Below, piece by piece: positions 29,460-46,443 of a DNA stretch of 46,443 nt (position 1 is the first letter of the stretch; each line of letters begins with the position of its first letter). Where the stretch lies: contig JAFEFQ010000243.1 in the NCBI GenBank assembly GCA_018240505.1, positions 1 through 46,443 on the forward strand. The letters run 5' to 3'. Source of the stretch: Pseudomonadota bacterium (GTDB lineage Bacteria; Pseudomonadota; Gammaproteobacteria; Xanthomonadales; Rhodanobacteraceae). A program made the translations under genes and the position numbers. The notes under the pieces were generated by a model. That model was not told the DNA's origin. It was given only the letters and a program-made list of their open reading frames with translations, and did no database searches.

Positions 29460-29510
29460 TTGCCGCACTAGCGTAGCGCGCGCGTCCAACTACCAGAGGC
29501 GGAGAGACCC

Positions 29511-31855: not shown

Positions 31856-31888
31856 ACGATGTCTCGGGACCCTGCTCTTTTCGCCACA

Positions 31889-31987
31889 CCCGCGAAGGCG
31901 GGAATCCAGCTCTTGCTCGTAAATGTCATTGCTGCCACGAAAAAGCATTCAAAAGAAGAACTGGATTCCCGTTTTCGCGGGAATGAC
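31889..31987. repeat. Long REP-type element between converging genes
   Basis: A left arm (31889-31910, CCCGCGAAGGCGGGAATCCAGC) is itself a hairpin and pairs with a right arm (31961-31987) that contains CTGGATTCCCG and TTCGCGGGAATGAC. The 50-nt middle is AT-rich. It fills the gap between the PstS-like gene (plus) and the outer-membrane gene (minus) and may stop or stabilise both transcripts. Confidence 0.8.
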
Positions 31988-32012
31988 GGACGAGCCATGA
32001 GGATCATTGCCC

Positions 32013-32798
32013 TCAAAGCGGCACTTCGAAGATCGCCTTCATCGTCCACTTGTCGCTGGCCGCGTTGAGTCCGCGGCCAATGCCGAAATTGAACGGGACG
32101 GCGACGCCGCCGGCATCGAACGCAACAAACAGCTGCTGGCTCTGCTTGCGCGCCGGTTCGAAATTGCCGAACGGACCCATCTCGTCGTAGTACTCGATGC
32201 CGACGGCGTTGTCGCCGCCGATACTGCGGGAGACCTTGATGCCCGGCCCGAACTGCGCCCTGGAGTCGACGTAGCGCGAGCGGAATGTCTTGTCGATCGC
32301 CGGATTGAACGCGACCAGCCAGTCCTCGTTGCGATAGCCGAGGATCGGTCGCAGCTCGACGATCGGGCGGCCCTGTTCGAGCCGTTCGTTCACCGCGCCG
32401 ACCTCGACATTGAGGCCGCCGAACAGCCCGGCCTCGCCCTCGGCGGGCTTGAACGCCATCCATTTCAGGCGCACGCGCGGCCCGGCGAAGTACGTGGTGC
32501 CCGAGGAATCGCGCAGGAACGGCAGGTACAGGCCGGCCTCGAGCGAATCGGTCAGGCCATAAGACCATTCCATCGTCGCGCGCACACCGTGGTTCGGCGG
32601 GATTTCGCGCGGCCAGTCCGGTTCCGAGCGCCCATCGAGCGTGGTGTTGAGATGCAGTTCCAGGCCGAGCTGGCCCTTCCTGTTGATGCTGTCGTCGTAG
32701 ACCTGGATTTCGTCGGTGAGATCGGCGTGCGCGTTCGCCGCGGCGAGCGCAAGGAGGATGGACGCGGCGCGTCTGGCGGCTCGAAGGCGACGGTGCAT
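32013..32798 (-). CDS. Putative outer-membrane beta-barrel protein
   Basis: A 261-residue exported protein with a signal peptide ending near NAHA (residue about 25). The mature part is built of alternating amphipathic strands, such as GQLGLELHLNTTLDG, RATMEWSYGLTDSLEAGLYLP, RVRLKWMAFKP and KWTMKAIFEVPL, typical of a small outer-membrane barrel. The last residue is Leu rather than the common Phe. No family function is known to me. It starts 21 nt after the stop of the PepSY-reductase gene, at the end of the TonB-receptor gene series, so a role in the same uptake process is likely but unproven. Confidence 0.7.
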   Translation of the reverse strand: MHRRLRAARRAASILLALAAANAHADLTDEIQVYDDSINRKGQLGLELHLNTTLDGRSEPDWPREIPPNHGVRATMEWSYGLTDSLEAGLYLPFLRDSSGTTYFAGPRVRLKWMAFKPAEGEAGLFGGLNVEVGAVNERLEQGRPIVELRPILGYRNEDWLVAFNPAIDKTFRSRYVDSRAQFGPGIKVSRSIGGDNAVGIEYYDEMGPFGNFEPARKQSQQLFVAFDAGGVAVPFNFGIGRGLNAASDKWTMKAIFEVPL

Positions 32799-32819
32799 GG
32801 GTCCGCTCCTGCTCTTCTT

Positions 32820-34877
32820 CTACAAGTCCAGCACCAGCACCGGGCTCTTCGCACGCGAGCAGCACGGTGTGAAGCGGTCGTTGCGCGCGCGTTCCTCCGC
32901 GGTGAGCACGCGATCGCGGTGGTCGGGCACGCCGTCGAGCACGCCGGTCAGGCAGGTGCCGCAGACGCCCTGCTCGCACGAGCGCGGCAGCACGATGCCG
33001 TTCGCGGCGAGCACGTCGAGCGCACTGTCGTTCTTGCCGACCGTGTAGCTTTTGCCGGAACTGGCGAGCTTGATCGTGTACCCGGTGTCGTTCTCCGAAT
33101 GCAACACATCGGCGGCGAAGTACTCGCGATGCAGGTTCTCCTCGCGCCAGCCGGCATGCTTCGCCGCGGCCAGCACCGCGTCCATGAATCCGTTCGGGCC
33201 GCAGACATACAGGTGCGTGCCGGCGTCGGGCTGCGCGAGCAGTCCGTCGAACTTGCCCTCGCGCGCCGCGCCCTCGCTGAAATGGAACTGCGTGCGGTCG
33301 GCGAACGCCGAGCGTTCGATGCGCTCGACGAACGCGGCGCGTTCGCGCGAACGCGCGAAGTAGTGCAAGCGGAAACCCGAGCCGATGTTGGCCAGGCGCT
33401 CGGCCATGCACAGGATCGGGGTGATGCCGATGCCGCCGGCCAGCAGCAGCGAGTGGACGGCGCCGTGCGCGAGCGGGAAGTGGTTGCGCGGGTCGCCGAT
33501 GCGGATCAGGTCGCCCTCGTCGACTTCCTCGTGCAGCGCGCGCGAGCCGCCGCGCGAATCGGGCGTGCGCAACACGCCGATCAGGTAGCGATGCGTCTCG
33601 CGCGGATCGTTGCACAGCGAATACTGGCGCACGATGCCGTCGCGCGCCTGCACGTCGATGTGCGCGCCGGCCGAGAACGCGGGCAGCGCGGCGCCATCCG
33701 GATCGGCCAGCTCGAACGTGCAGATGTTCGTCGCCGCGGCCGTCTTGCGCACGACGCGCACCTGGCGCGGCAGGCGCGACGGATCGCGCTCGGCGCGGCG
33801 CAGCCAGCTGCGGATGCCGGTATAGCCGAGCCACGGCACACCGATCGCGCCGAGCAGCAACAGCAACTGGCCGATCCAGCCGCCGACGTAACCCATGTGC
33901 GCCGACAGCGTCCAGAAGTACAGTTTGTGGCCGAGGCTGGTCTGCGCATACGGCGTGAAGTCCAGCGTCTCGCCACTGAACGCGTCCACCGTCATCAGCG
34001 TGCGCGCGTTCGGATGCGGCGCATCCTTGCCGATCGAATAGATCTCGACCGCATCGTCCGCATGCTGCGGGTAATGGATCAGCACTTCCCTGGACGGCGG
34101 CACCGTCGCCTGCACCTTCTGCCAGATCGTTTCCACCGGCAGGCGCGGCGTACCCGGCGCGACTTCATGCGACGCCGGCAGATGCCCCGGCGGCGTCGAG
34201 CCCGTCAGCCAGTAGACGCTCTTGCGATACCAGTCGAACGACTGCGGCAGGCCGGTCAACACGCTGAACAACACGATCACGGCCACGTACGGCCCGACCA
34301 GCCGGTGCAGGGAAATATCCTTCGCAGGTCCCGCGGCCGGCCGCGGCGCGTTCCACGCCAGCGCACGCCGCACGCCGCGCCACGACCCCGGCCACCACAG
34401 CACGAGACCGCCGATCACCAGCACGAGGCCGAGCAGCAGCGCGCTCGTGCCGACGATGAGGTTGCCGCGCGGCATGAAACGGAAGCGATGCAGCTGCTCG
34501 ACGAAGCCGAACGGCCCGCCCCAGCGATGGCGCAGCCCGAGCACCTCGCCGGTGCACGGATTGAGGTAGACGAACATTTCGTCGGTGAAGCGGAACGCCG
34601 TCGCCGGGATGCGTGCCGCGCCGTCCCTGCCCGTGCGGATGCGCACGTAGTCGAGCTTGCCTTGCGGATACGCCTTCACGCCGTTCGTCGCCAACGTATC
34701 GATCGGCACGCGGTTCGTGCAGGCCGGCACGGTGTACAGCTCGGGCGCCTGCGGCACTTCCAACTGCTTGCGGAACACGAGGAAGATGCCGGTCAGCGCC
34801 ATCCATACGACGACGAGGCCGGCGGTCAGGCCGACCCAGCGGTGCACGGGGCGAAGGGCGCGGCGCAGCGCGATCAT
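32820..34877 (-). CDS. PepSY membrane domain fused to ferredoxin-NADP reductase and [2Fe-2S] domain
   Basis: A 685-residue inner-membrane electron carrier. Residues 1-360 form a PepSY-associated domain with four helices (about 14-35, 139-162, 194-212, 332-354) and histidines (12, 130, 191, 318, 327) suited to haem binding. Residues about 370-575 are a ferredoxin-reductase module: FAD-binding RQYSLCND (417-424), NAD(P)-binding AGGIGITP (480-487), VCGPNGFM (558-565). Residues 600-685 are a plant-type [2Fe-2S] domain, Cys634, Cys639, Cys642 and Cys672. Electrons could pass from NAD(P)H across the membrane to reduce a periplasmic metal complex. PepSY reductases with a flavodoxin-reductase partner are linked to siderophore use. 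It follows the binding-protein gene by 19 nt. Confidence 0.92.
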   Translation of the reverse strand: MIALRRALRPVHRWVGLTAGLVVVWMALTGIFLVFRKQLEVPQAPELYTVPACTNRVPIDTLATNGVKAYPQGKLDYVRIRTGRDGAARIPATAFRFTDEMFVYLNPCTGEVLGLRHRWGGPFGFVEQLHRFRFMPRGNLIVGTSALLLGLVLVIGGLVLWWPGSWRGVRRALAWNAPRPAAGPAKDISLHRLVGPYVAVIVLFSVLTGLPQSFDWYRKSVYWLTGSTPPGHLPASHEVAPGTPRLPVETIWQKVQATVPPSREVLIHYPQHADDAVEIYSIGKDAPHPNARTLMTVDAFSGETLDFTPYAQTSLGHKLYFWTLSAHMGYVGGWIGQLLLLLGAIGVPWLGYTGIRSWLRRAERDPSRLPRQVRVVRKTAAATNICTFELADPDGAALPAFSAGAHIDVQARDGIVRQYSLCNDPRETHRYLIGVLRTPDSRGGSRALHEEVDEGDLIRIGDPRNHFPLAHGAVHSLLLAGGIGITPILCMAERLANIGSGFRLHYFARSRERAAFVERIERSAFADRTQFHFSEGAAREGKFDGLLAQPDAGTHLYVCGPNGFMDAVLAAAKHAGWREENLHREYFAADVLHSENDTGYTIKLASSGKSYTVGKNDSALDVLAANGIVLPRSCEQGVCGTCLTGVLDGVPDHRDRVLTAEERARNDRFTPCCSRAKSPVLVLDL

Positions 34878-34896
34878 CGTGGGCGTGCCGTCGAGG

Positions 34897-35913
34897 TCAA
34901 TGCTGCGCCTTCAGCGCCTTGTCGACGAACGCGTTCGTGTAGGTCTGCTTCACGTCGACCGACTTGTACTTCGGATTCGCCTCGGCGAGCACGCGGTACT
35001 CGCCCGCCGCACCGTCCTCGGGCATGCGCCCGTCGTTGGCGAACATCGGGATCTGCTCCTTGAGCACCTTCAGGTAGTCGTCGCCGTACTGCTTGCGCAC
35101 GTCGGCCGGAATCTTCGCCATGATCTCCTCCGGCGTGTGCGTGTTGATGAACTTGAGCGTGCGCACGAAGGCGTTGGCCAGATGCTGCGCGATCTCGGGC
35201 TTCTCCTTGACCAGCGCGCTTTTCATGAAGATCGTGTTCGACGGAAACAGCACGCCGAACGCCTTGCGCGTGCCTGCGGGCGTGGTCAGGTCGGCGAAAA
35301 GCGACGCGCCCTGCTTCTCGTAGAAAAAGCCGTCCGGCGTCGGCGCGACAACGAGATCGGCCTTGCCCTCGCTCAGCAGCTTCGCGTTCGCGTCCTTGCC
35401 TTCCGTTCCGGCGCGCGTGTACTCGTCGAGCTTGTGGCCACCGGCAAGGACGAGGTAATTCGCCGTCGTCGACTTCGACGAACCCGCGCCTCCCGCGATG
35501 ATGCGTGCGCCCTTGAGATCGGCCGGCGTCTTGTACTTGTCGCGCGCCTGGTTGGAGACGAGCACGCGCATGCCCGGCGTCACGCCGAGCGTGACCACGG
35601 CCTCAATCTCCTTGCCGGCCGCGCGATAAACGACGTTGTGATGCCAGTAGGCCATGACCGCATCGATGCGGCCGTCCATGAGCATGTCGATGTACGGCTC
35701 CTCGTTGCGCGTGTTCATCACGGTGACGTCGACGCCCTCGTCGCGGAAATAGCCGAGCTGCTCGGCGATCAGCACCGGGAACGAACGGATCTGCCTCACC
35801 TCGTCGACGAGCAGGACGATGCGTTCGCGCGGCGCGGGCGTGGCGGGCGGCGCAGCCGTGGCCGCGGCGCAGAGCAGGCAGAGCAGGAATGCGGTCAGAC
35901 CTTTGATTTTCAT
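34897..35913 (-). CDS. NMT1/NitT-TauT-type solute-binding protein
   Basis: A 338-residue periplasmic binding protein with a signal peptide ending near TAAPP (residue about 21). Family sequences: FPVLIAEQLGYFRDEGVDVTV, DAVMAYWHHNVV, the hinge GARIIAGGAGSSKSTTANYL, and ADLVVAPTP. This group binds sulfonates, nitrate, aromatic acids or thiamine precursors. The ligand here is not predictable. No permease or ATPase is encoded next to it, so it is an orphan binding protein. Start at ATG 35913, with a very good GGGGAGGTG Shine-Dalgarno. It lies 108 bp downstream of the small secreted protein and 19 nt before the PepSY-reductase gene. Confidence 0.88.
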   Translation of the reverse strand: MKIKGLTAFLLCLLCAAATAAPPATPAPRERIVLLVDEVRQIRSFPVLIAEQLGYFRDEGVDVTVMNTRNEEPYIDMLMDGRIDAVMAYWHHNVVYRAAGKEIEAVVTLGVTPGMRVLVSNQARDKYKTPADLKGARIIAGGAGSSKSTTANYLVLAGGHKLDEYTRAGTEGKDANAKLLSEGKADLVVAPTPDGFFYEKQGASLFADLTTPAGTRKAFGVLFPSNTIFMKSALVKEKPEIAQHLANAFVRTLKFINTHTPEEIMAKIPADVRKQYGDDYLKVLKEQIPMFANDGRMPEDGAAGEYRVLAEANPKYKSVDVKQTYTNAFVDKALKAQH

Positions 35914-36021
35914 GTGTCACCTCCCCGGGTTGCGCCCGCGAGTCTGCGGCGCGAACCTGAAAGGCGCATTAAAAATCCTTGAAACCGGCTCCCGGAGGTT
36001 GAGCATCCGTCGATACGAATG

Positions 36022-36432
36022 TCATTCGAGTTTCTTCAGCCAATCGGCGGCGGTGGTCGGCCCCGTCGCCACCGTGTCGGTGTGCTCGACAATGGTTTGG
36101 CGAATCGCGATCCAGAACCTGGCGCCTGTGGGTGCGCCGAGCTTCTTCAGCGCCGCGTCGCGGAGTGCTTCCTTCGCGGGCTCCACGTTTTCGTTCTGGA
36201 TCAGGAGAAAGTCCCACGAGCCACCATCCGAATGCACGTACAGCTCCCGCGGCGACAAGCCCGCCTGGCGATTGGCTTCGTCGTACAACGCGATCAACTT
36301 GAGAAACTCGACATGTTTGCCCGGCGCAATGTGGTAAATCTCGATCATCCGCGAGTCGTTCTGCGCAGCGAGGGCAGGAACGACCGGCGCCAGCGCGATG
36401 ACGACGGCGAGCAGGGTTTTGCAAAGCGTCAT
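36022..36432 (-). CDS. Small secreted alpha/beta protein (dimeric-barrel-like)
   Basis: A 136-residue protein with a signal peptide ending near PALAAQ (residue about 23). The mature part, MIEIYHIAPGKHVEFLKLIALYDE, then a WDFLLIQNEN strand, looks like a dimeric alpha/beta barrel (EthD/NIPSNAP-like ferredoxin fold), members of which bind haem or small aromatic molecules. No catalytic residues can be named. Start at ATG 36432 with AAGGAG 7 nt upstream. Being exported is unusual for this fold. It lies between the propeller-amidohydrolase and the binding-protein genes on the same strand. Confidence 0.65.
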   Translation of the reverse strand: MTLCKTLLAVVIALAPVVPALAAQNDSRMIEIYHIAPGKHVEFLKLIALYDEANRQAGLSPRELYVHSDGGSWDFLLIQNENVEPAKEALRDAALKKLGAPTGARFWIAIRQTIVEHTDTVATGPTTAADWLKKLE

Positions 36433-36530
36433 GGTGATCTCCTTGGTGAGGGCTGCTTGTCTGCCGAATGGCAAAAAACGGGACAACGAACTCTTCCGGC
36501 GAACGCAATGCTCGCCGCTACAGGCGTGAG

Positions 36531-39500
36531 TCAGGGTGGTATCCGCCTGGATTCGATCTCTCCTCTCTCGCGCGCGAACCACTGTGGCGCCAGCTTGCGC
36601 GGCTCGGGATAGATCTCATCGAGCGTCGCTGCGTCGTAGAGACGGCCGTTCTTCATCACCCATGCGATCGCCAGCGCGTTGCGGATGTCGCGAAGCGGAT
36701 TCCTGTCGAGGATTACGAGGTCGGCATACTTGCCGGCGTCGATGCTGCCGATCTCGTCCTGCCGCCCGATCGTCTCGGCCGAACCGATCGTCGCCGCACG
36801 CAGCACTTCATGAGGCGTCATCCCGCCGGCCGCATGCGCCTGCATCTCCCAGTGGATACCGTAGCCCGGGACTTCGCCGTGCGAACCGATGCCGACAAGG
36901 CCGCCGGCGCGCTGCACGCTTGCCGCACCTTGCGCGATCGCGCCAAAAAAATATTCCTCGGGCGCATACCAATGGCGCCGCGAAAACTTCTTTTCGGCGA
37001 GCAGCGGCGGCGAAAAATGCGCGAGCCTGGCATCGTTCTGCGGCAAATCGCGTTCGATGAAGAAATTCTGCGCGGGCGGTCCCCCGTGCGAAATCTGCAG
37101 CGTCGTGGTGTAGCTTGTGCGCGTCTGCGCGAGCAGCTGGATCACGTCCTTGTACAGCGGTGCCGCGGTCAACGCGTGCTCGTTGCCGGGAAAGCCGTCG
37201 ATGATCTGGGTCAGGTCCAGTTTCATGTCGAGCGCACCTTCGCAGGTGGGCTGCAGGCCAAGTTCGTTCGCGGCGATCGCCACCCACTCGCGCACGCGCC
37301 GGTTGCCGGTGCGATATTCCTTGAGATTGCGCGAACGGAAGTGGTCGGGATAGCGTGCGAGCACTTCCCGCACCTGGTCGAGACTGGTGAATTCGTTGTA
37401 CGAGAACACCGCAACGCCGGTCGTGAAAACGCGCGGGCCCAGCGACAGGCCGGCGTCGAGCAGGTCCTCGTAAGCGAACATGTCGATGGACAGCGACGAT
37501 GGATCGAGCCCGGCGGTCTGGCCGAAGGCGAGGTCGGCAAGGAAGCTCCAGTTCTGCATGTCGAGCACGCCGCGGCGGATCTCGGCCCAGTGGTCGTGCG
37601 TGTCGATGAAGCCCGGCACGATGAATTTGCCCGAAACATCGCGCACGACCGCATTCGCCGGAACCGCCACCGCTCCGCGCTTGCCGACCGCGGCGATGCG
37701 GTTGTCGACTGCGACGACGTCGGCATCCTCGATGACTTCATCGCCGCGCATCGTCACTGCGGTCGCGCCACGCAGCACGAGCGCACCGTGCGGCACGTCG
37801 CGTGGCACTTCGACCCTCGCCGCGAACACCTGGACGCCATCTTTGCCGGCCTGTGGATGCGCACGCTGCCCTGCCTCGCCCGCGCGATCGAGCGCGATGT
37901 TCGCGAGTGGCTGCTTGTACAGTGTCGAACCGATTGCCCAGAACACGCTCTTGCCGCCGTCGGCCCAGCCGAAGAAATCCGCACCGACGCTCGTGAGCTG
38001 GCGGTGTGCGACCGGCGGCGCGGCGAGGTCCAGCGTTTCGCCGGGCTTGGCCGGCATGCGCAGCAAATGGAGTTGCTCGACGATCTGGGCGAGCACGTAT
38101 CGGCCATCGGGACTCAGGCGCAGATCGTCGGCCGCGACGCGGCCCTCCTGGAAGTAGTAGCCCGGTCCGGTGATCTTGACGAGCGTGCGCCTGCCCGAGC
38201 CATCGAGCTTGACCGCTTCGAGTCCCGCGTCGGAAACGATCGCGACCTCGCCCGGATCGGCGCCGAAATGCGGCACGCCGCCGAAGCGCCCGTGCGCGAG
38301 CACGCGCGCTGCGCCGCCTTGCCCGGGCAGCGCGATCAGATCGAGTTCGCGCAGCGGGCCGTATTCCATGTACGTGTGCATGCGCTCGTAGTTGCTCGAG
38401 CGCTCGGCGACGAGGTTTTTGCCGTCCGGCGTGAATGCGGGGTGCGTGTAATACGCGGCTTCCGCGGTCAACGCGCGCGGTTCGCCGCCGGCCGCATCGA
38501 TGCGCCAGATGCGGCCGGCGGCGCGAGCGGCCCAGCTCACGTAGGCGATCGTCTTGCCATCGGGCGACCATGCCGGTTCGAATGCCGCCACGCCCGCAGG
38601 CGACAGCACGCGCGGCGCGGCGTTGTCCGCCAGTTCCATCGTATACACGCGGCCGAGTGCCGAGAACGCGACGCGGCGGCCGTCGGGCGACAACGCGGGC
38701 GCCTGGATCAGGCGCGCCTTCACGGGCCCGGTGTCGTCCTTGAACGAGCGGCGCAGCGAGGGGCCGACATCGAGATCGACGCGCACGCGAAATGGAATCA
38801 CGCTTGCCTTGCCGCTCGCCAACTCGACGCGATGGATCTTGCCGCCATACGCGGCGACTAGCGCGTGGCCGTCCGGGGTGAACGCATAGCCTGGCATCAA
38901 ATCGCGAGTCGAAAGCCCTTCCTGGTCGTCGTGCTGGACCGGATAAACGAGTTCGCGATCGTCGCCGCTCACGAGATCGCGTGCGCGCAGGCCGGTCTGG
39001 CTGCGGTAGCGCGCAGCGTAGATGAGAGTCCTGCCGTCGGGAGACAGCGCCGGGCGCATCGCGCTGCCCTGATTGGTCACGATGGTCTCGCTCGCCCCGG
39101 TCGAAAGATCGCGGCGCTCGATGCTCCACATCGGCAGGCTCATGTCTTCGTCGAACGTGCCGTAGCGGCCGGCATAGTAGAGATGCCGGCCGTCACGCGC
39201 CGCGACGGCGCCGAGCACGCTGTAACGCTGGTCTTTCGGCTGCGCGTCGTAGCTCTTGCCCGCGGTGACGCGTTCGCCTTTGCCGTCGCCGTCGAGCGCG
39301 AAGCGCCAGAGCTCGTACGCGGTCAGGTCGGAATGGAAGATCGAAACATAGATCGCACGGCCGTCAGCCGACCAGGCCGGCGAGGCGAACACCGCGTTGT
39401 CGTCGAACGTCGAAATCTGGCGCGCATGCGTGCCATCGGCATCCGCGATCCAGACGTTCTCGTTGCCCGAGCGGTCGCTGACGAACGTGATGTGCCTGCC

Positions 39501-39773
39501 GTCTGGCGCGAATCGCGGCTGCGAATCGAATTCGAGACCGTGCGTGATCGCCTTCGCCTCACCGCCGCCGATCGGCAAGGTATACAAATCGCCGAGCAGC
39601 TCGAAAACGATACGGCGCCCGTCCGGAGCGACGTCGAGCGATATCCAGGTGCCCTCGTCCGTGTCGATGCGCACATGCCGCGTGGGAGTCAGCGGCAACG
39701 TGCCGTCCTCCGCCGCCGCAAAGCCGGACGCTGCGCAGAGAACCCCGAGCCAAAGCAGTCTCTTCAATGACAT
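36531..39773 (-). CDS. Secreted TolB-type propeller fused to amidohydrolase
   Basis: A 1080-residue exported protein with a signal peptide ending near FAAAE (residue about 21). Residues about 40-650 contain many TolB/WD40-like PD40 repeats (FAPDGRHITFVSDRSG, LSPDGRTLIYAARY, WSPDGKTIAYVSW, LSPDGRYVLAQI). Residues about 660-1070 form an amidohydrolase: metal-binding HDH (726-728) in FIDTHDHWAE, histidines in LQISHGG and GSHGEVPGYGIHWEM, and the terminal AGKYADLVILDRNPL. It should be a large periplasmic hydrolase whose propeller gates access to the active site, as in tricorn-like peptidases. Start at ATG 39773, 49 nt after the preceding gene's stop; the Shine-Dalgarno is weak. Substrate unknown, peptides or amides likely. 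Confidence 0.9.
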   Translation of the reverse strand: MSLKRLLWLGVLCAASGFAAAEDGTLPLTPTRHVRIDTDEGTWISLDVAPDGRRIVFELLGDLYTLPIGGGEAKAITHGLEFDSQPRFAPDGRHITFVSDRSGNENVWIADADGTHARQISTFDDNAVFASPAWSADGRAIYVSIFHSDLTAYELWRFALDGDGKGERVTAGKSYDAQPKDQRYSVLGAVAARDGRHLYYAGRYGTFDEDMSLPMWSIERRDLSTGASETIVTNQGSAMRPALSPDGRTLIYAARYRSQTGLRARDLVSGDDRELVYPVQHDDQEGLSTRDLMPGYAFTPDGHALVAAYGGKIHRVELASGKASVIPFRVRVDLDVGPSLRRSFKDDTGPVKARLIQAPALSPDGRRVAFSALGRVYTMELADNAAPRVLSPAGVAAFEPAWSPDGKTIAYVSWAARAAGRIWRIDAAGGEPRALTAEAAYYTHPAFTPDGKNLVAERSSNYERMHTYMEYGPLRELDLIALPGQGGAARVLAHGRFGGVPHFGADPGEVAIVSDAGLEAVKLDGSGRRTLVKITGPGYYFQEGRVAADDLRLSPDGRYVLAQIVEQLHLLRMPAKPGETLDLAAPPVAHRQLTSVGADFFGWADGGKSVFWAIGSTLYKQPLANIALDRAGEAGQRAHPQAGKDGVQVFAARVEVPRDVPHGALVLRGATAVTMRGDEVIEDADVVAVDNRIAAVGKRGAVAVPANAVVRDVSGKFIVPGFIDTHDHWAEIRRGVLDMQNWSFLADLAFGQTAGLDPSSLSIDMFAYEDLLDAGLSLGPRVFTTGVAVFSYNEFTSLDQVREVLARYPDHFRSRNLKEYRTGNRRVREWVAIAANELGLQPTCEGALDMKLDLTQIIDGFPGNEHALTAAPLYKDVIQLLAQTRTSYTTTLQISHGGPPAQNFFIERDLPQNDARLAHFSPPLLAEKKFSRRHWYAPEEYFFGAIAQGAASVQRAGGLVGIGSHGEVPGYGIHWEMQAHAAGGMTPHEVLRAATIGSAETIGRQDEIGSIDAGKYADLVILDRNPLRDIRNALAIAWVMKNGRLYDAATLDEIYPEPRKLAPQWFARERGEIESRRIPP

Positions 39774-39822
39774 GGGTGGAGAGTTCCTGTCGGCGGGCTT
39801 GCGAGCGACATGGTGAACAGCG

Positions 39823-41145
39823 TCATGGGCGATAAGCGGGCGGCCAGGGATCCTTCGCAAGCTTCGGCGCGTATCGGTCGCGAAGCAGGGTCTGGCGCGT
39901 GATTGGCGATGCCTGCACCCCGCGGACGAACACGACTTCAGGCGCGCTCGACGGCTCGAATGGGTCGCCATTCCAGAGGACGAGATCGGCATCGAGGCCG
40001 CGCGCCATGCTGCCGTAGTGGTCCGCAATGCCGAAAATACGCGCCGGATTCACGGTCAGCGCCTTCATCGCATCGGCGTACGCCAATCCGTTGGCAACGG
40101 CCAGACCCGCACCTTCGCGCACCGCGACGCCGGCGTTGTGGCTGAGGTAGATGGTGTTGCCCGACACGCTGAACGCGATCGTCACGCCGGCGCGCGCGAG
40201 GATCGCCGCGTTGTCGGCGCGCGCGCCGAGTTCGTCGAATGTCCACGGCAGATCCGCCTCGGGATCGAGCACGACGGCGGCCTTGTGCGCGGCGAGCAAA
40301 TCCGCGCAGCGCCAGGCCTCGGCGCCGCCGATCACGATGAGGGACAGGCCGTAACCGTCCGCGAGGCGCACCGCCTGGCGAATATCGGACTCGCGCGAGA
40401 CGCGCAGGGCGAGCGGAACCCGCTTTTCGACCATTGCGCGCAACGCGGCGATGTTGAGCGCATTCTGCAGTTGATCGCGCGGCGCGCCCACGCCGGACTT
40501 CGGCGGCACGTAGGCCTTCGCCTCGTCGAACGCGTTGCGCAGCCATTGCCATTGCGCACTGCGCGAGCCGCCGCTTTGCTTGGCGCCGAAACCGCCGACG
40601 CTCGCGTACATCGCGGCCCTCGCGCGGTCGAGGACATCTCCGCCGGGCTGCACCCGCAGCACCGCACCCATGCCGAGAAAGGCCGCGTCGGCAGCCGCGG
40701 ACGGGCTCGTCACCGCGCGCGTCAGTCCGTCGGCAAGGACCACCGGCAGCAATGCCGAATTGCGGTTGAGGCCGTACTGCACATCGAACGCGGCACCGAG
40801 CGGGCCGGCATTGACGCCGTAGTCGCGCGTCTCCTCGAGCGAAGACACTTCGACGAGCCCGAGATGCGTATCCGCGCTCATCAGGCCCGGCGTGACCACG
40901 CGACCGGTGGCGTCGATCACGCGCGCACCCGCCGGTGGCGGCGCCTTGGCCGCAACCGATTCGTAGCGGCCATCGCGGATGACGATGGTGGCGTCGTCGA
41001 CGCGGCCGCCGGATGCTTCGACCATCGTCCACGCATTCGCATGGACGATGGCGATCGTCCCGCCCGCGGCCATGCTCATCGCCGGCACCATCGGGAGCAA
41101 CGCGATAGCGAGTATATTTTTGACGATTTTATACTTTCCCTTCAT
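39823..41145 (-). CDS. Amidohydrolase-like secreted protein lacking metal ligands (probable pseudoenzyme)
   Basis: A 440-residue protein with a signal peptide ending near SMAAG (residue about 27). It has the amidohydrolase shape: the N-terminal beta domain (VIRDGRYESVA), PGLMSADTHLGL, and the C-terminal NPARIFGIADHYGSMARGLDADLVLWNGDP. The metal-binding H-x-H is replaced by D92-T-H94, and the histidines expected after the fifth and sixth strands are absent (LALRVSRESDI in place of a H-containing strand; IVIGGAEAW). It probably cannot hold the metal centre and may act as a structural partner for the intact enzyme encoded just upstream, whose stop codon is 4 nt from this ATG. The N-terminus is unusually Lys/Ile-rich. 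Confidence 0.8.
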   Translation of the reverse strand: MKGKYKIVKNILAIALLPMVPAMSMAAGGTIAIVHANAWTMVEASGGRVDDATIVIRDGRYESVAAKAPPPAGARVIDATGRVVTPGLMSADTHLGLVEVSSLEETRDYGVNAGPLGAAFDVQYGLNRNSALLPVVLADGLTRAVTSPSAAADAAFLGMGAVLRVQPGGDVLDRARAAMYASVGGFGAKQSGGSRSAQWQWLRNAFDEAKAYVPPKSGVGAPRDQLQNALNIAALRAMVEKRVPLALRVSRESDIRQAVRLADGYGLSLIVIGGAEAWRCADLLAAHKAAVVLDPEADLPWTFDELGARADNAAILARAGVTIAFSVSGNTIYLSHNAGVAVREGAGLAVANGLAYADAMKALTVNPARIFGIADHYGSMARGLDADLVLWNGDPFEPSSAPEVVFVRGVQASPITRQTLLRDRYAPKLAKDPWPPAYRP

Positions 41146-41149
41146 CGCC

Positions 41150-42583
41150 CTATTCCGCCTCGGCCGCCATGCTCGGCTGACCCAACTCGAAATCCGAACG
41201 CGGATGCCGTGCCGGATTGCCGCGGTCGTAGACCACCGCGCCGTCGATGAAAACCTGATCGGCCTTCACATAAACGCTGAACGGATCTCCCGACCAGATC
41301 ACGACGTCCGCGTTCTTCCCCGGCTCGAGCGAACCGATCCTGGCGTCGAGACCAAGAACCTTTGCGGAATTCAACGTAATCCATTCGATCGCCCGTTCCG
41401 GGCCGATCGCGAGACCCGCACGCCGCCCCGCGGCGAGCGCCTTGCCGGCTTCGAGCCTCAGGCGTTGACCGAGCCAGGGCGAGTCCGAATGCAATGTGAC
41501 GCAAGCTCCGGCGGCGTCGACGAACGCGGCGTTCTCGCGAATGCCGTCGAGCGCCTCCATCTTGTAGCCCCACCAATCCGACCATACGACCGCGCAGGCA
41601 TGGTTGGCGACGAACAATTGCGGAATCTTGTACGCCTCCACCGCATGGTGAAACGCGTCGATATGGAAACCGGCTTCGCGGGCAACATCGAACAGCGTCG
41701 CCATGTCGTCGGCACGGTAGCAGTGCCAGTGCACGCGGATGTCACCCGCGAGCACGCCGGCGAGCGTGTCCTTCTTCAAGTCGTCGTCGGGCCGCTTGCC
41801 GTGTCCGCCGGCGTAGTCGAGCCACTTCGCCCGATATTCGGCGGCTTCGAGGAACGCCGCGCGCACGCCGGCCACGTTGCCCATGCGACTGGTCGGAAAT
41901 CTGCCTTTCTCGCCGTAGTTGTATTTCGGATTTTCCCCGCACGCGAGCTTGACGCCGTACGGCGCATCCGGAAATTTCATCGCCTGCACGGTCGTGGCCG
42001 GAACGTTCTTGAGCACGACGGAGCGGCCGCCGATCAGATTGCTCGATCCGGGCAGGATCTGCAGCGTCGTGACGCCTCCGGCCAGCGCGCGCCCGAACGA
42101 GGGATCCTGCACGGCGATGGAGTGCTCGGCCCAGACATTCGGCGTGATCGGGTCGCTGCCCTCGCTCACGTCGGAGTTCTGCGCATCGAGGCTGGTGAAC
42201 GGCGCGGAGAAGTCGCCGTCGTGCGAATGCACGTCGATGATGCCTGGCGTGACCCAGCGTCCCTTCGCATCGATCGTCGCGGCACCCGCGGGCGCTGCGA
42301 TGGCCTGGGTGGAGAGTGCGACGATCTTGCCGTCGCGCAACAGCAGATTCGCATGTTCGAAGCGATGTCCCGCGCCGTCGAGGACGGTAGCGTCGACGAT
42401 CAGCGCGTCCTGCCGCGGCAAGGGCCGGTACGTACTCGGGAACGGGTCGCGCTTCCACGGCAGAGTCGCCTGGGCCGCCCCGTGCTCGCGCGCGGACTGC
42501 GGCCTTCCGTCCTCGCCGCGTGGTCCCGCTTGCGCCGCCGATGCGGTCAGCGCGAGAGCCAGCGAGAGCGCGGCGAGCTTCAT
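41150..42583 (-). CDS. Secreted imidazolonepropionase-like amidohydrolase (intact metal site)
   Basis: A 477-residue exported metal-dependent hydrolase with a signal peptide ending near AAQAG (residue about 19). Metal ligands: HSH (119-121) in IIDVHSHDGD, a lysine in the GVKLACGENPKYNYGEKG region, histidines in IRVHWHCYRADD and IDAFHHAVEAY, and the aspartate in VTLHSDSPW. The C-terminal GLDARIGSLEPGKNADVVIWSGDPF closes the family pattern. It likely cleaves an amide or cyclic amide in the periplasm. Start at ATG 42583, 10 nt after the TonB-receptor stop, so receptor and hydrolase are co-expressed. Followed by the probable pseudoenzyme with a 4-nt gap. Confidence 0.92.
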   Translation of the reverse strand: MKLAALSLALALTASAAQAGPRGEDGRPQSAREHGAAQATLPWKRDPFPSTYRPLPRQDALIVDATVLDGAGHRFEHANLLLRDGKIVALSTQAIAAPAGAATIDAKGRWVTPGIIDVHSHDGDFSAPFTSLDAQNSDVSEGSDPITPNVWAEHSIAVQDPSFGRALAGGVTTLQILPGSSNLIGGRSVVLKNVPATTVQAMKFPDAPYGVKLACGENPKYNYGEKGRFPTSRMGNVAGVRAAFLEAAEYRAKWLDYAGGHGKRPDDDLKKDTLAGVLAGDIRVHWHCYRADDMATLFDVAREAGFHIDAFHHAVEAYKIPQLFVANHACAVVWSDWWGYKMEALDGIRENAAFVDAAGACVTLHSDSPWLGQRLRLEAGKALAAGRRAGLAIGPERAIEWITLNSAKVLGLDARIGSLEPGKNADVVIWSGDPFSVYVKADQVFIDGAVVYDRGNPARHPRSDFELGQPSMAAEAE

Positions 42584-42593
42584 GCGGCGAGCT

Positions 42594-44756
42594 TCAGAAC
42601 TTGCGCGTGATCGTGAAATTGGCTGCGCGGCGCAAGCCGTAGAAACATTGCGACGTGCTCGAGCAACGCGACAGATATTCCTTGTCGAACAGATTCGCGA
42701 CATTGAGCTGCATCACCCATTTGTCGAGATTGTAGTGAACTGTCGCGTCCCAGAGTACAACCGACGGTGCCGGGAACTGATTGAACGAGTCGCCGTAGCT
42801 CTTGCCGACGTAGCGCATGCCGAGGCTTCCGCCCAGGCCCGCGAGCGACCCTTCCTGCTGCGTATAGTCGACGAGTGCCGAGAGCATCTGCTTGGGCACC
42901 TGCACGAGTTCCTTGCCGAGGCTCGCATCGGTGGCCTTGGTGACTTCCGAGTCGGTATAGGTGTACGCCGCGTTGAAGCTCCAGGTTTCGTTGAAGCGGG
43001 CGACCGCTTCGAGTTCGATGCCTTTGACTTCGACCTCGCCGGTTTGCACGCTGAAGAACAGATGCGCCGGATCGGCGGTCAGCACGTTCTTCTGGGTCAG
43101 GTCATAAGCCGCCGCGGTGAACAGCAAACTCTTGCCCGGCCCGAGCGATGGCTGGTACTTGATGCCGGCTTCGACCTGGTTGCCTTCGGACGGTTTGAAC
43201 AGGTTCTTGTCGTAGTCCGCGCCCGGCGTCGGCTGGAACGAGGTCGCGTACGAGACGTACGGCGCGATGCCGCCGTCGAACAGGTAGTTGAGGCCGGCGT
43301 GATAGGTGAACTTGTTGTTGGTCGACGAGGTGCCGGAACTTGCGGTGTTGACGTTGTCCTCGCGGCCGCCGAGCGTTACCACAAGGCGATCGATCTTGAT
43401 CTGGTCCTGTACGTAGAGGCCGGTCTGCTTCTGCACTTCGTTGACGTACGGAAACAATTGCGCGGGCGGCGTACCGATGTTGCCGTAGACCGGGTGGAAC
43501 AGGTCGAGCGGCGGAGCAACGGCGAAACCGAATTCCGAATCGTCGGTGTAGCGACGATAGTCGAGACCGACCAGCAGATCCTGCTTGACCGAACCGCTGA
43601 CGATCTTGCCTTCGACGCGCGAATCGACGTTGAACGATTTGACGTTCTCGTTGAACGGGAAGTTGTAGCGGTTGACCAGGCCGTAGTTGAGCGAACCGTC
43701 GGCGTTGCTGGCCAGGCCCGCGCCGTAGATCTGCTTGATCTTCACATCGGACGAGAAGTATTTGAGGTTCTGCTCGAAGCGCCAGTCGTCGTTGAACTTG
43801 TGGTTGAAGTCGTAGCCGACACCGTATTGGTCGCGGTCGAAATGGTTGTAGTCGGGCTCGCCGAGGTTGGTGCTCGTCGGCACGCGGCCGAGCGGATTCG
43901 GCGCATCGACGCCGTAAATCGGCAGGAAGCCGCCGCCGTCGCCGTAGACGTCGTCGTGCTGGAAATAGCTGAGCCAGGTCAGGTTCGTTTCCGGCGAAAT
44001 CACCCAGGTCAGCGCCGGCGCGATGTAATAGCGATCGGTGTCGACGCCGTGGGCCTGCGTGCCCTTGTCGAACCACAGCGCGGTGATGCGGCCGAGGAAG
44101 CGGCCGTCCGCATCGAGCGGGCCGGTGAAATCGGCAGCGAGTTGCGTGTTCGCGTAGCTGCCGTACTGCGCCTGCAATTCACCACTGAACTGCGCCTCGG
44201 GGCGACGGCTGGTCAGGTTGACGATGCCGCCCGGGGGCGACAAGCCGTACAGCGTCGACGACGGGCCCTTGAGCACCTCGACGTTCTGGAAGCCGTACAG
44301 GTCGACGCCGACGTTGCTGACCGAACCGATCGGCGCCTGCAGGCCGTCGATGTATTCGGGCGGGTAGAAGCCGCGCAACGTGAGCCAGTCGTAGCGAGGA
44401 TCGGGGCCATAGTTCTCGCCGATCACGCCCGAGGTGTAGCGCACGACCTGGCTGAGATTCTGCCAGTCGAGCAGGTCGATCTGGTCGCGCGTGATCACCG
44501 TCACCGACTGTGGCGTCTCGATCAGCGGCACGTTCGACTTGGCCGCACCATTGGTTTCTATCGGTACGTAGTCCGGCGCGGAAACGACGATGCTCCCGAG
44601 TTGCGCCACCTCCTTCTTCTGATCGCTGTCGACCGCCGGATCCGCGGTGGCGGAATGCACCGCCGCGGCAGGCAGGATCAACGCCAGCAGCATGCCGACA
44701 TACAGCGGATGACGCCGGCAAGGATGGGACGGAAAAATCGATTCACGAATGGTCAT
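42594..44756 (-). CDS. TonB-dependent siderophore-type receptor (FhuA/FoxA-like)
   Basis: A 720-residue outer-membrane receptor. Signal peptide through about residue 37; a TonB-box-like GSIVVSA (54-60); plug domain about 75-180 with IETPQSVTVITRDQI, YDWLTLRGF, VEVLKGPSSTLYG and PGGIVNLTSRRP; then a 22-strand barrel ending with NLFDKEYLSRC, a C-x6-C pair and a terminal Phe. The end segment resembles hydroxamate siderophore receptors. No N-terminal signalling domain is present, so it does not itself drive a sigma/anti-sigma pair. It is the first gene of the minus-strand series down to 32013. The 157-bp upstream gap shows no convincing Fur box. The siderophore class is inference; another chelate or peptide is possible. 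Confidence 0.93.
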   Translation of the reverse strand: MTIRESIFPSHPCRRHPLYVGMLLALILPAAAVHSATADPAVDSDQKKEVAQLGSIVVSAPDYVPIETNGAAKSNVPLIETPQSVTVITRDQIDLLDWQNLSQVVRYTSGVIGENYGPDPRYDWLTLRGFYPPEYIDGLQAPIGSVSNVGVDLYGFQNVEVLKGPSSTLYGLSPPGGIVNLTSRRPEAQFSGELQAQYGSYANTQLAADFTGPLDADGRFLGRITALWFDKGTQAHGVDTDRYYIAPALTWVISPETNLTWLSYFQHDDVYGDGGGFLPIYGVDAPNPLGRVPTSTNLGEPDYNHFDRDQYGVGYDFNHKFNDDWRFEQNLKYFSSDVKIKQIYGAGLASNADGSLNYGLVNRYNFPFNENVKSFNVDSRVEGKIVSGSVKQDLLVGLDYRRYTDDSEFGFAVAPPLDLFHPVYGNIGTPPAQLFPYVNEVQKQTGLYVQDQIKIDRLVVTLGGREDNVNTASSGTSSTNNKFTYHAGLNYLFDGGIAPYVSYATSFQPTPGADYDKNLFKPSEGNQVEAGIKYQPSLGPGKSLLFTAAAYDLTQKNVLTADPAHLFFSVQTGEVEVKGIELEAVARFNETWSFNAAYTYTDSEVTKATDASLGKELVQVPKQMLSALVDYTQQEGSLAGLGGSLGMRYVGKSYGDSFNQFPAPSVVLWDATVHYNLDKWVMQLNVANLFDKEYLSRCSSTSQCFYGLRRAANFTITRKF

Positions 44757-44913
44757 AGGTCACCCCAAGGGCAATGTGTGAAAACGATGCGGGGGCTGTT
44801 CTCCCCTTTGTTCGAACTTTCGATGCCGTTCCGTCGCATCCACTCTCGTCCTCTTCTTTCCGTCACGCCTACGCGGCAGGGTCTTTCATCGTCGAGTTCA
44901 GGCCATCGCAACG

Positions 44914-45882
44914 CTACTCGAAAAGCCGGGACAGCCATGCCGCTCCGTCGGCAATCGCCCGATCGGCGAGTTCCGAAATGGACACGGCTTCGAGAAAACT
45001 GTGGGTCGCACCGGCGTATTCCACGAGATCCGCCGGCACGCCCGCCGCGCGCAACTTCGCCGCGAAGGCGATGCTTTGTTCGGCCAGCACGTCGCATTGC
45101 GCGCAGACCAGAAACGCAGGTGGCAGGCCGGCAAGGTCCGCGCGCATCGGCGAAGCAAGCGGATTGAGGGATTCGCTGGTTCGTTCAAGGTAGTTGACCC
45201 AGAAGGTCTCCATCTCCGCAGCCGTCAGGAGATTGCCTTCCGCGCCGAAACCGCTCGCCGCGGCGTCGGAAATCTCGGGCGTGTAGCAGCCGTAGATCAG
45301 CAACATGCCGCGCAACCATTGCGATGCACCGATATCGCGCAAGACAAGGCTCGTGGCGACGGACAGGTTGGCGCCTGCCGAGTCGCCGCCGATCGCGAGG
45401 CGCGTTGCGTCGAGGCCGAAATCCGACGCCCCTTCACGCAACTCCCGCACGGCATCGACGACCTGCTCGAGCGCATGGGGGAATTTCACTTCGGGCGACA
45501 GCGCGTAGTCGATGCCGACGACCGTGGCCGCGGCCCTCGCGGCGAACTCGCGCATGATGCGGTCGTGCGTGTCCAGGCTGAACATCGTCCAGCCGCCACC
45601 GTGAAGATAAACGAGCGCCGGCTGAGCTTCGGGGCCCGCAGCCGGGCGATGGATTCGCGCCCTTATCGGGCCGTGACGCGTGGGCAACGATGTCTCCCGC
45701 GTCGTCGCCATTCCGGGTCCGCCCTGGCGCCACGGCGTTCGAACGATTTCGGCAATGCGCCGTTTCTCCACCACAGGCAACGACTCGACGGCGGGGTATT
45801 CCGCCCATGCCCGCGCCAAGGCGGCCACGAAACGGCGGATCTCGGGATCGAGCGGATCGCGGGCGAATATCTCCGCACTCAT
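44914..45882 (-). CDS. Alpha/beta hydrolase, HSL-type esterase
   Basis: A 322-residue cytoplasmic serine hydrolase of the hormone-sensitive-lipase family. The oxyanion-hole motif HGGG (94-97), nucleophile Ser168 in GDSAG, Asp264 in QCDVLAE and His294 in THSFLEAV form the catalytic set. It hydrolyses short acyl esters or esters of larger organic molecules. No signal peptide is seen. Start at ATG 45882. It lies 157 bp upstream of the TonB receptor on the same strand and is divergent from an AraC-type regulator. A link to the receptor's ligand (for instance hydrolysis of an ester in an imported chelator) is speculation from position. Confidence 0.93.
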   Translation of the reverse strand: MSAEIFARDPLDPEIRRFVAALARAWAEYPAVESLPVVEKRRIAEIVRTPWRQGGPGMATTRETSLPTRHGPIRARIHRPAAGPEAQPALVYLHGGGWTMFSLDTHDRIMREFAARAAATVVGIDYALSPEVKFPHALEQVVDAVRELREGASDFGLDATRLAIGGDSAGANLSVATSLVLRDIGASQWLRGMLLIYGCYTPEISDAAASGFGAEGNLLTAAEMETFWVNYLERTSESLNPLASPMRADLAGLPPAFLVCAQCDVLAEQSIAFAAKLRAAGVPADLVEYAGATHSFLEAVSISELADRAIADGAAWLSRLFE

Positions 45883-45914
45883 GCCTTGTGTTCCTCTCTG
45901 CGCATCGATGCTCC

Positions 45915-45928
45915 CAAACCAAGGTTTG
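45915..45928. promoter_or_regulatory. Palindrome in the esterase/AraC divergent promoter
   Basis: A perfect inverted repeat CAAACC-AA-GGTTTG lies 33 bp upstream of the esterase start, between it and the AraC-type gene. A plus-strand -10-like TAGAAT is at 45959-45964. It is a candidate operator; AraC-type proteins more often bind direct repeats, so another regulator is possible. Confidence 0.4.
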
Positions 45929-46057
45929 TGACGATTGCGTGACCTTCGGTTCTGTGCTTAGAATCGAATCACGACTTCACCCAAGCGCCCGTCAATCTAG
46001 TCCGCACCGGGAAATACGCTGTCGAAAGGGGATCGTTCGTCGTCTCGCGTGGGCCAC

Positions 46058-46443
46058 ATGCAGCGCAGCAAGAGAAGCATCGATTATCAGTACGTGCCTC
46101 GACCGATCGCGGTGCTGGCCGACGAGTATCCGTCCGGTTTCCACGATCCGAAGCATCGTCACGTTCGCGCGCAGCTCGTCTATGCGATCAGCGGCGTCAC
46201 CATCCTCAGCACGCAAGATGCAAGCTACGTGGCGCCGCCGCAGCGCGCGATCTGGATTCCTCCCGGTGTCGAACACGAAGTCCGCTGCCGCGGCTGCGTG
46301 CAGATCCGCACCTTGTATATCGCACCCGACGCCGCGCCCGATTTGCCGCAGAGCTGCCAGGTATTCGAGGTATCGAATCTCTTGCGCGAACTGATACTCG
46401 CAGCGACCGAAATGCCGGTCGAATACGCGCTCGAAGGCCGCGA
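46058..46443 (+). CDS. AraC-family transcriptional regulator, N-terminal part (continues past right edge)
   Basis: The reading frame from ATG 46058 encodes MQRSKRSIDYQYVPRPIAVL and then a cupin-like sensor domain: HDPKHRHVRAQLVYAISGVTIL with metal/ligand-type histidines, and RAIWIPPGVEHEV. This is the N-terminal arm of AraC-type regulators with a cupin (AraC_binding) domain; the two C-terminal helix-turn-helix motifs would lie beyond the window. About 128 residues are visible. It is divergent from the HSL esterase and probably regulates it, and possibly the receptor genes beyond. A likely -10 TAGAAT lies about 90 nt upstream of the start. Confidence 0.85.
   Translation, partial: MQRSKRSIDYQYVPRPIAVLADEYPSGFHDPKHRHVRAQLVYAISGVTILSTQDASYVAPPQRAIWIPPGVEHEVRCRGCVQIRTLYIAPDAAPDLPQSCQVFEVSNLLRELILAATEMPVEYALEGR

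What the first reader, a model, noticed from the sequence alone, without database searches (positions are those of the whole stretch)
32013..44756. Candidate new uptake-and-processing system: TonB receptor, three secreted amidohydrolase-type proteins, binding protein and PepSY-[2Fe-2S] reductase
Seen: eight same-strand genes with gaps of 4-157 nt, all but the PepSY-reductase with a signal peptide, ordered receptor, intact amidohydrolase, metal-less amidohydrolase, propeller-amidohydrolase fusion, small alpha/beta protein, NMT1-type binding protein, PepSY-reductase, outer-membrane protein. Known: the receptor resembles hydroxamate-siderophore receptors, PepSY reductases serve siderophore iron release, and imidazolonepropionase-like amidohydrolases cleave amides. 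Inference: an amide-containing chelate or peptide is imported, cut in the periplasm and its metal reduced. No transporter permease/ATPase and no clear Fur box is seen, so the route into the cytoplasm and the regulation are open.
Basis: partly seen in the sequence, partly recalled or inferred. Interest (0 to 1): 0.8.

Follow-up and report, generated by a model that had tools for sequence, protein, structure and literature searches.

The report
Import-and-cut kit for foreign siderophores
Two distant groups of bacteria share a set of neighbouring genes, in shuffled orders, that is predicted to take in an iron carrier made by another microbe, would strip off the iron and then likely cut the carrier into pieces; the last three genes of the original finding belong to a separate unit.

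Summary
The eight same-strand genes are there, but they are two units meeting at a sharp homology break at 35,976-36,024. OMP, PepSY-reductase and NMT1 stand apart from the rest in both genus-mates that carry them; in one of these the amidohydrolase cluster lies about 1 Mb away. The other unit (36,022-46,443) is a real conserved cluster that extends past the finding and is cut by the contig end. In the four nearest named relatives it reads: amino-acid permease, FMN-binding protein, FoxB-like PepSY_TM protein, AraC | alpha/beta hydrolase, FhuA-type receptor, AH1, AH2, propeller-amidohydrolase, with a small barrel protein in two. Much of the set recurs, reshuffled, in sphingomonads: receptor in 18, hydrolase in 17, PepSY_TM in 13, AH1/AH2 in 12 of 21 loci. 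AH1 keeps all metal-ligand positions (39 of 39); AH2 lacks the first HxH histidine in 40 of 40 yet is under purifying selection, a conserved pseudoenzyme. Best reading: import of a ferric hydroxamate-type xenosiderophore, reduction by the FoxB-like protein, amide cleavage of the emptied ligand. Ligand and all catalysis are inferred. New variant of the FoxA/FoxB-HiuABC kind.

The parts
46049..46443 (+). divergent AraC-type regulator, N-terminal 131 residues; cut by the contig end
   Evidence: 92% identical to the AraC of L056 over residues 1-131, rest not found in the held assembly; Pfam HTH_18 and AraC_binding on the L056 copy
44914..45882 (-). alpha/beta hydrolase (abH), hormone-sensitive-lipase type, no signal peptide by eye
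   Evidence: Pfam PF07859 198 bits; LipP1 237 bits, below that model's cut-off of 350; in 9 of 10 loci with propAH at 49% identity or more and 17 of 21 sphingomonad loci
42594..44756 (-). TonB-dependent receptor, FhuA/FoxA/FetA type
   Evidence: TIGR01783 378 bits, cut-off 223.5; PDB matches FetA, FhuA, FoxA at E about 1e-120
41150..42583 (-). AH1, secreted amidohydrolase with all ligand positions
   Evidence: 3ooq at E 1e-60; ligand positions kept in 39 of 39 rows
39823..41145 (-). AH2, metal-less paralogue of AH1 (pseudoenzyme)
   Evidence: 3ooq at E 2e-32; first His of HxH in 0 of 40, strand-6 His in 0 of 40 rows; dN/dS 0.14-0.25 against the four nearest relatives
36531..39773 (-). propAH, beta-propeller fused to an amidohydrolase domain
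   Evidence: PD40 and Amidohydro_1; H726, H728, K818, E845, H866, H965 kept in 23 aligned rows
36022..36432 (-). small secreted protein (sab), predicted ferredoxin-like dimeric-barrel fold
   Evidence: no Pfam or NCBIfam family; model pLDDT 87; Foldseek NIPSNAP and ABM proteins, best E 4e-4, TM 0.38-0.51 over the 50 rows listed
35976..36024 (.). break between the two homology blocks
   Evidence: L056 and L062 match from 36,025 up; L075 and L076 match down from 35,975 and 35,974
34897..35913 (-). NMT1-type binding protein; separate unit, not part of the system
   Evidence: in G053 and G337 with the next two genes, apart from the cluster
32820..34877 (-). PepSY_TM / ferredoxin-reductase / [2Fe-2S] protein; separate unit
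   Evidence: Pfam; with NMT1 in G053 and G337
32013..32798 (-). predicted outer-membrane protein; separate unit

Best explanation
The genes at 36,022-46,443 are one half of a conserved gene cluster that is predicted to import a ferric hydroxamate-type xenosiderophore through an FhuA-like receptor, would release its iron with a FoxB-like PepSY_TM reductase (encoded beside AraC in relatives, beyond this contig's end), and would likely cut the emptied ligand in the periplasm with the amidohydrolases AH1 and propAH. AH2, a metal-less paralogue kept beside AH1, would act as its structural or regulatory partner. Amino-acid-like pieces would enter through the permease of the cluster and be finished in the cytoplasm by the alpha/beta hydrolase and the FMN-binding protein; AraC would sense ligand or product. 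Shown here: gene content, linkage in changing gene orders, protein families, metal-ligand conservation (AH1, propAH) or loss (AH2), purifying selection on AH2, and the separateness of NMT1, PepSY-reductase and OMP in relatives. Inferred: ligand, metal, reduction, every cleavage, AH1-AH2 contact, order of steps, and that this very genome has the missing half.
For: Linkage: in the ten named loci with propAH at 49% identity or more, AH1+AH2 in 9, abH 9, AraC 9, FMN_bind_2 8, FhuA-type receptor 6, PepSY_TM 6, permease 5, small protein 4. In 21 sphingomonad loci: receptor 18, abH 17, AraC 14, FMN_bind_2 14, PepSY_TM 13, AH1 and AH2 12, permease 8, small protein 5, in many gene orders. PepSY_TM is FoxB-like: FoxB (7abw) is the only solved match, E 7e-27 by profile, with four His invariant in 37 sequences at His of FoxB, and Foldseek's top hits. 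Receptor nearest FetA, FhuA, FoxA. AH1 ligands 39 of 39, propAH set kept in 23 rows. Fur-type site before the receptor in L062 and a Fur-like palindrome before the receptor in 10 of 21 sphingomonad loci, against 1 site elsewhere in 411 kb. Literature: HiuAB and B. cenocepacia FhuB show FhuA-type receptor plus FoxB-like protein used for hydroxamates (PMC13001220; PMC10866019); bacterial amidases degrade iron-free desferrioxamines for C and N (passage in PMC11800396).
Against: No substrate is known. The missing half was not found in this genome: no orthologue of the FoxB-like gene, FMN-binding protein or the rest of AraC in the held assembly, which is 86% complete (the permease was not searched for). 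PepSY_TM is not seen in L063-L065 or in 8 of 21 sphingomonad loci, and AH1/AH2 not in 9 of 21. No Fur box in the window; L056-L058 and L059 have none near the cluster. Five loci at 41-47% have propAH without any of the other genes. Most AH1-AH2 pairs examined elsewhere stand without this receptor, so the pair is not siderophore-specific. TIGR01783 receptors need not carry siderophores (recalled).
Confidence: 0.5

Rival explanations
1. The conserved cluster imports and breaks down another amide-containing natural product (peptide, lipopeptide or antibiotic, perhaps a copper or other metal chelate), as food or for detoxification; the siderophore-type receptor and PepSY_TM protein serve that ligand.
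For: Some loci lack PepSY_TM and use a distant receptor (L063-L065). Copper receptors of the CrtA type are followed by PepSY_TM genes in more than 75% of loci (passage in PMC12914433). AraC control and an amino-acid permease suit catabolism. No Fur box in the window.
Against: Receptor nearest FetA, FhuA, FoxA; PepSY_TM nearest FoxB; Fur-type or Fur-like sites before the receptor in L062 and 10 of 21 sphingomonad loci.
Confidence: 0.28
2. General scavenging of dipeptides or cyclic amides by secreted amidohydrolases, with the receptor and PepSY_TM genes only loosely associated.
For: propAH's amidohydrolase part matches dipeptidase-type structures (Cc2672, 'possible prolidase') besides phenylurea hydrolase B; AH1-AH2 and distant propAH relatives occur without the receptor.
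Against: Receptor in 18 of 21 and abH in 17 of 21 sphingomonad loci despite reshuffled order.
Confidence: 0.14
3. One reading: NMT1 protein, PepSY-reductase and OM protein work with the receptor and hydrolases as one operon.
For: In this contig all are on one strand with gaps of 4-108 nt, and the PepSY-reductase could stand in here for the FoxB-like protein that was not found in this genome.
Against: The three genes lie apart from the cluster in G053 (no AH2 or propAH match) and G337 (about 1 Mb away); absent near the cluster in 15 named and 21 sphingomonad loci; homology break between NMT1 and the small protein.
Confidence: 0.05

Closest known systems
HiuABC of Caulobacter crescentus (PMC13001220; abstract and passages seen)
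   Same: FhuA-related receptor encoded with a FoxB-like PepSY protein; a predicted Fur box upstream there, Fur-type or Fur-like sites in part of the relatives here
   Different: no hydrolases named in the passages I saw (the word 'hydrolase' occurs 0 times); here three amidohydrolases, an alpha/beta hydrolase, an FMN-binding protein, a permease and AraC; HiuC not looked for
FoxA/FoxB of Pseudomonas aeruginosa and FhuA/FhuB of Burkholderia cenocepacia (PMC10866019; passages)
   Same: receptor type and PepSY_TM reductase family next to each other
   Different: no amidohydrolase is mentioned in the B. cenocepacia paper ('hydrolase' and 'amidohydrolase' 0 times)
Thermotoga-type amidohydrolase 3ooq (identity recalled as TM0814)
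   Same: AH1 (E 1e-60) and AH2 (E 2e-32) align over most of their length
   Different: AH2 lacks the ligands; function of 3ooq not found in print in the held library
CrtA copper receptor with PepSY_TM partner (PMC12914433; passages)
   Same: receptor plus PepSY_TM gene
   Different: our receptor is nearest hydroxamate/pyochelin receptors; no hydrolases in the passages I saw; CrtA itself was not compared

Membership tests
FoxA/FoxB - HiuAB type hydroxamate xenosiderophore uptake | FhuA/FoxA-type TonB receptor | tested here: met
   (TIGR01783 over cut-off; FhuA and FoxA equivalog models below cut-off)
FoxA/FoxB - HiuAB type hydroxamate xenosiderophore uptake | FoxB-like PepSY_TM protein encoded near the receptor | tested here: inconclusive
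   present in 6 of 10 named loci and 13 of 21 sphingomonad loci; in this genome the contig ends before the place and no orthologue is held
FoxA/FoxB - HiuAB type hydroxamate xenosiderophore uptake | Fur control | tested here: inconclusive
   no site in window; site in L062; Fur-like palindrome in 10 of 21 sphingomonad loci
FoxA/FoxB - HiuAB type hydroxamate xenosiderophore uptake | iron from hydroxamate siderophores in growth tests | not testable with these tools
   needs strains and ligands
FoxA/FoxB - HiuAB type hydroxamate xenosiderophore uptake | small HiuC-like membrane protein | not tested
   no HiuC sequence was fetched
amidohydrolase superfamily, AH1 | HxH, bridging acid, two His, Asp (scheme recalled) | tested here: met
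   39 of 39 rows
amidohydrolase superfamily as active enzyme, AH2 | same ligands | tested here: not met
   first HxH His 0 of 40, second 5 of 40, strand-5 His 4 of 40, strand-6 His 0 of 40; Asp at the loosely aligned strand-8 column in 12 of 40
amidohydrolase superfamily, propAH | same ligands | tested here: inconclusive
   HxH, K and H kept, but Glu and His stand at the His and Asp places in all 23 aligned rows: a variant site
Atxe2-type lasso-peptide isopeptidase | propeller plus serine-peptidase domain | tested here: not met
   propAH scores 77 bits against a cut-off of 400, on the propeller; its second domain is an amidohydrolase
   0 of 15 named loci, 0 of 21 sphingomonad loci; apart in G053 and G337

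The most novel reading that the evidence does not exclude
A siderophore-eating system: a gene set spread over Alpha- and Gammaproteobacteria that couples FoxB-type reductive iron theft to periplasmic dismantling of the stolen siderophore by an enzyme-pseudoenzyme amidohydrolase pair and a propeller-amidohydrolase, so that one molecule pays in iron, carbon and nitrogen. It would give genes to the deferrioxamine- and ferrichrome-degrading activities described in bacteria.
Probability: 0.33. Interest if true: 0.8.

Novelty: new variant of a known kind. Interest (0 to 1): 0.6.

Why it matters
Known receptor/FoxB-type modules take the iron and leave open what happens to the ligand. If this cluster does what its parts suggest, it supplies candidate genes for bacterial siderophore breakdown, an activity for which the passages I saw name amidases but no such gene set, and it makes the question testable in named strains: Dyella amyloliquefaciens DHC06, Rhodanobacter sp. 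PCA2, Rudaea sp. 3F27F6, Sphingobium subterraneum DSM 102255. It also points to a widespread amidohydrolase enzyme-pseudoenzyme pair. I found no paper describing this gene set or this pair in the held open-licence library (searches, judged from listings and the passages named in the report); most subscription papers are not held there.

Tried and rejected
Eight-gene operon: rejected by the separate location of the last three genes in relatives and the homology break. NMT1 as the system's binding protein: rejected for the same reason. Lasso-peptide isopeptidase for the propeller fusion: sub-cut-off match on the propeller only. Decayed gene for AH2: rejected by dN/dS of 0.14-0.25 against the four nearest relatives (0.44 against L059 at 55% identity, where propAH gives 0.47) and by open frames of at least 300 codons in the rows used. 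Conserved neighbours for stand-alone AH1-AH2 pairs: in 12 larger loci no neighbour was shared by more than four. RNA elements in 31000-46443: four matches, all below gathering score. Promoter and terminator scans: 1 and 11 sites, shuffles 1.3 and 11.1. FoxB-like gene, FMN-binding protein and the rest of AraC elsewhere in the window's genome: no orthologue held. The omega-aminotransferase of G053: best match in the window's genome 33%. Fur-like pattern in four sphingomonad genomes: six places, four of them the receptor promoters it was made from, two others (L116, L121) near an ORF without Pfam match and a flavin monooxygenase-like gene; the reversed-pattern control gave none. This neither proves nor excludes Fur.

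Rows dropped before counts: one search left out 11 duplicate locus ids and the raw window frames; one search left out 8 duplicates and the raw window frame. Of the 30 genomes other than L061's own that passed, 20 were fetched, chosen from the higher-scoring matches; the other 10, among them partial and weaker matches, were not examined.
Full report
What is in the window. The window is a whole contig (C159) of a 3.5-Mb, 281-contig assembly estimated 86% complete. The eight minus-strand genes of the finding are real and in the stated order. Pfam and NCBIfam give families to six; the small protein and the OM protein have none. 157 nt upstream of the receptor, on the same strand, is an alpha/beta hydrolase gene (abH, 44914-45882), and beyond it a divergent AraC gene runs off the contig end.

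Two units, not one. A search with the NMT1 protein over 299 genomes of the order found it in four at E <= 1e-40, the window's own among them. In G053 and G337, both of the same genus, it stands with the PepSY-reductase and OMP genes. G053 has no match to AH2 (E <= 1e-20) or propAH (E <= 1e-100). In G337 the amidohydrolase cluster is on the same contig but about 1 Mb away (118,676 against 1,138,521). The fourth hit (G054, 31%) has no PepSY-reductase or OMP match nearby. In G053 an omega-aminotransferase gene (NCBIfam AptA, 690 bits, cut-off 500) precedes NMT1; a similar-looking gene lies there in G337 (not scanned). Blastn shows the break directly: window 36,025-46,443 matches cluster relatives L056 and L062, window 32,012-35,975 matches L075 and L076, with 49 nt between. 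The second block reaches 62 nt upstream of the NMT1 start codon, so that unit keeps its leader. Whether the junction is a natural rearrangement or a mis-assembly cannot be told without reads. The trio was found near the cluster in 0 of 15 named relatives and 0 of 21 sphingomonad loci.

The real system. The one genome-contig scan with propAH gave 15 loci: ten at 49-82% identity, five at 41-47%. Mapped with the window's and relatives' proteins, the four nearest (L056, L057 Dyella, L058 Rhodanobacter, L062 Rudaea) read: amino-acid permease - FMN_bind_2 - PepSY_TM - AraC | abH - receptor - AH1 - AH2 - propAH, with the small protein next in L056 and L062. Pfam supports the first four on single copies. 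Of the ten, AH1+AH2 are in nine (not L061; AH1 is cut by the contig end in L060), abH and AraC in nine, FMN_bind_2 in eight, the FhuA-type receptor and PepSY_TM in six, the permease in five, the small protein in four. L063-L065 have a distant receptor, scanned in L063 and over the TIGR01783 cut-off, and no PepSY_TM match. The five loci at 41-47% show none of the other genes. In the window's family the close form is patchy: 5 of 233 genomes at 77% or more, the window included, all five with abH-receptor-AH1-AH2-propAH in order; 26 further genomes hold only a 35-37% relative. What follows the cluster differs: UvrC and PgsA in L056, a pyrroline-5-carboxylate reductase in L057, whose relative lies there in L058.

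An independent lineage. In the family of Sphingobium subterraneum (Alphaproteobacteria), 31 of 397 genomes hold propAH at E <= 1e-200. I fetched up to 20 kb around 20 of the other 30 (two pieces are shorter) and mapped them with L061. Of 21 loci: receptor 18 (one at 38% identity), abH 17, AraC 14, FMN_bind_2 14, PepSY_TM 13, AH1 12, AH2 12, permease 8, small protein 5. Orders and strands differ between groups of loci, so the linkage is not simple synteny; the loci are related, so the counts are not independent events. The protein lists agree: six FoxB-like clusters share their longest-contig length with small-protein clusters.

The hydrolases. AH1 aligns with 3ooq over residues 64-457 (E 1e-60) and keeps every ligand position in 39 of 39 rows. 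AH2 aligns with the same structure (E 2e-32) but has the first His of HxH in 0 of 40, the second in 5, the strand-5 His in 4 and the strand-6 His in 0; Asp stands at the loosely aligned strand-8 column in 12. Its dN/dS against the four nearest relatives is 0.14-0.25 (AH1 0.12-0.13, propAH 0.16-0.21); against L059 it is 0.44 (AH1 0.26, propAH 0.47). AH2 is thus a kept pseudoenzyme. The pair is wider than this cluster: 86 of 151 order genomes have an AH2 relative at E <= 1e-20, and all 18 loci L006-L023 have AH1 beside it. Of the 16 larger loci, one is the cluster itself (L024) and only one other (L034) shows any, distant, match to the window's receptor. propAH keeps H726, H728, K818, E845, H866 and H965 in the 23 rows: Glu and His stand where His and Asp are usual (scheme recalled), a variant site rather than decay.

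The other parts. The receptor's nearest solved relatives are FetA, FhuA and FoxA. The PepSY_TM protein of relatives has FoxB (7abw) as its only solved match, E 3.5e-4 by single sequence and 6.8e-27 by profile; four His invariant in 37 sequences align with His in FoxB; Foldseek puts FoxB first at TM 0.68-0.72, the only matches below E 0.001. The small protein is predicted to be a ferredoxin-like dimeric barrel, a fold-level statement only.

Regulation. The window has no Fur-box match within three mismatches. L062 has a 16-of-19 match holding TGATAATAATTATCA between abH and the receptor, 0 in 100 shuffles; L056, L057, L058 and L059 have none at 13 of 19 or better near the cluster (L057's lies outside it). 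In sphingomonads a site matching TATTGCGAATCATTCGCAATA at 15 of 21 or better stands within 450 nt upstream of the receptor in 10 of 21 loci and at one other place in 411 kb. That it is Fur is inference; a four-genome check did not settle it.

How it would work. Shown: gene set, linkage, active-site patterns. Inferred: a ferric hydroxamate-type ligand enters by the receptor; the FoxB-like protein reduces the iron in the periplasm, as proposed for HiuB and B. cenocepacia FhuB (PMC13001220; PMC10866019); AH1, partnered by AH2, and propAH cut amide bonds of the emptied ligand; small products enter by the permease and are finished by abH and the FMN protein. A passage of PMC11800396 says that bacterial desferrioxamine amidases act on the iron-free form and that the product served as carbon and nitrogen source, which fits this order. 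The main rival is another amide-rich ligand or another metal, since PepSY_TM is missing from some loci and copper receptors can have PepSY_TM partners (PMC12914433).

Verdict. It works like, and in part belongs to, the FoxA/FoxB - HiuABC kind, with a hydrolytic arm added. I found no description of it in the held library. Papers: PMC13001220 outline, abstract and passages; PMC10866019, PMC12914433, PMC11800396, PMC12364333 and PMC8891985 passages only; all others search listings.

Noticed in passing
L006-L023 and window 39823-42583: AH1 beside a metal-less AH2 is a common pair across the order, mostly without the rest of the cluster; a candidate enzyme-pseudoenzyme heteromer of unknown function.
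   Followed up: partly
window 35913-35975; L075 and L076 upstream of NMT1: About 62 nt before the NMT1 start codon are similar in the window and two genus-mates, with an A/T-rich stretch at the far end that resembles a -10 element by eye.
   Followed up: partly
L075:10421-18024 and L076:1272-9212: The NMT1 / PepSY-reductase / OMP unit lies in a region with an omega-aminotransferase (L075), a GABA-type aminotransferase (scanned in L076), a GntR-type regulator and a dipeptide-type binding protein (scanned in L075); perhaps an amine-use locus.
   Followed up: partly
window 17671-19758 (+): Another large protein (695 aa) with an amidohydrolase domain at residues 320-669.
   Followed up: no
window 20309-22615 (-): 768-aa protein whose C-terminal part is a YceI domain.
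   Followed up: no
window 28759-30410: Two secreted-looking proteins (minus-strand 28759-29292, plus-strand 29511-30410) with no Pfam match that look alike by eye near their N-termini; both have matches beside the NMT1 unit in G053.
   Followed up: no
window 30407-31855 (+): 482-aa PstS-like protein (PBP_like_2), next to the NMT1 unit also in G053.
   Followed up: no
L116:1501-1518 and L121:1501-1518: In two sphingomonad genomes the Fur-like pattern also lies near an ORF without Pfam match and a flavin monooxygenase-like gene.
   Followed up: partly
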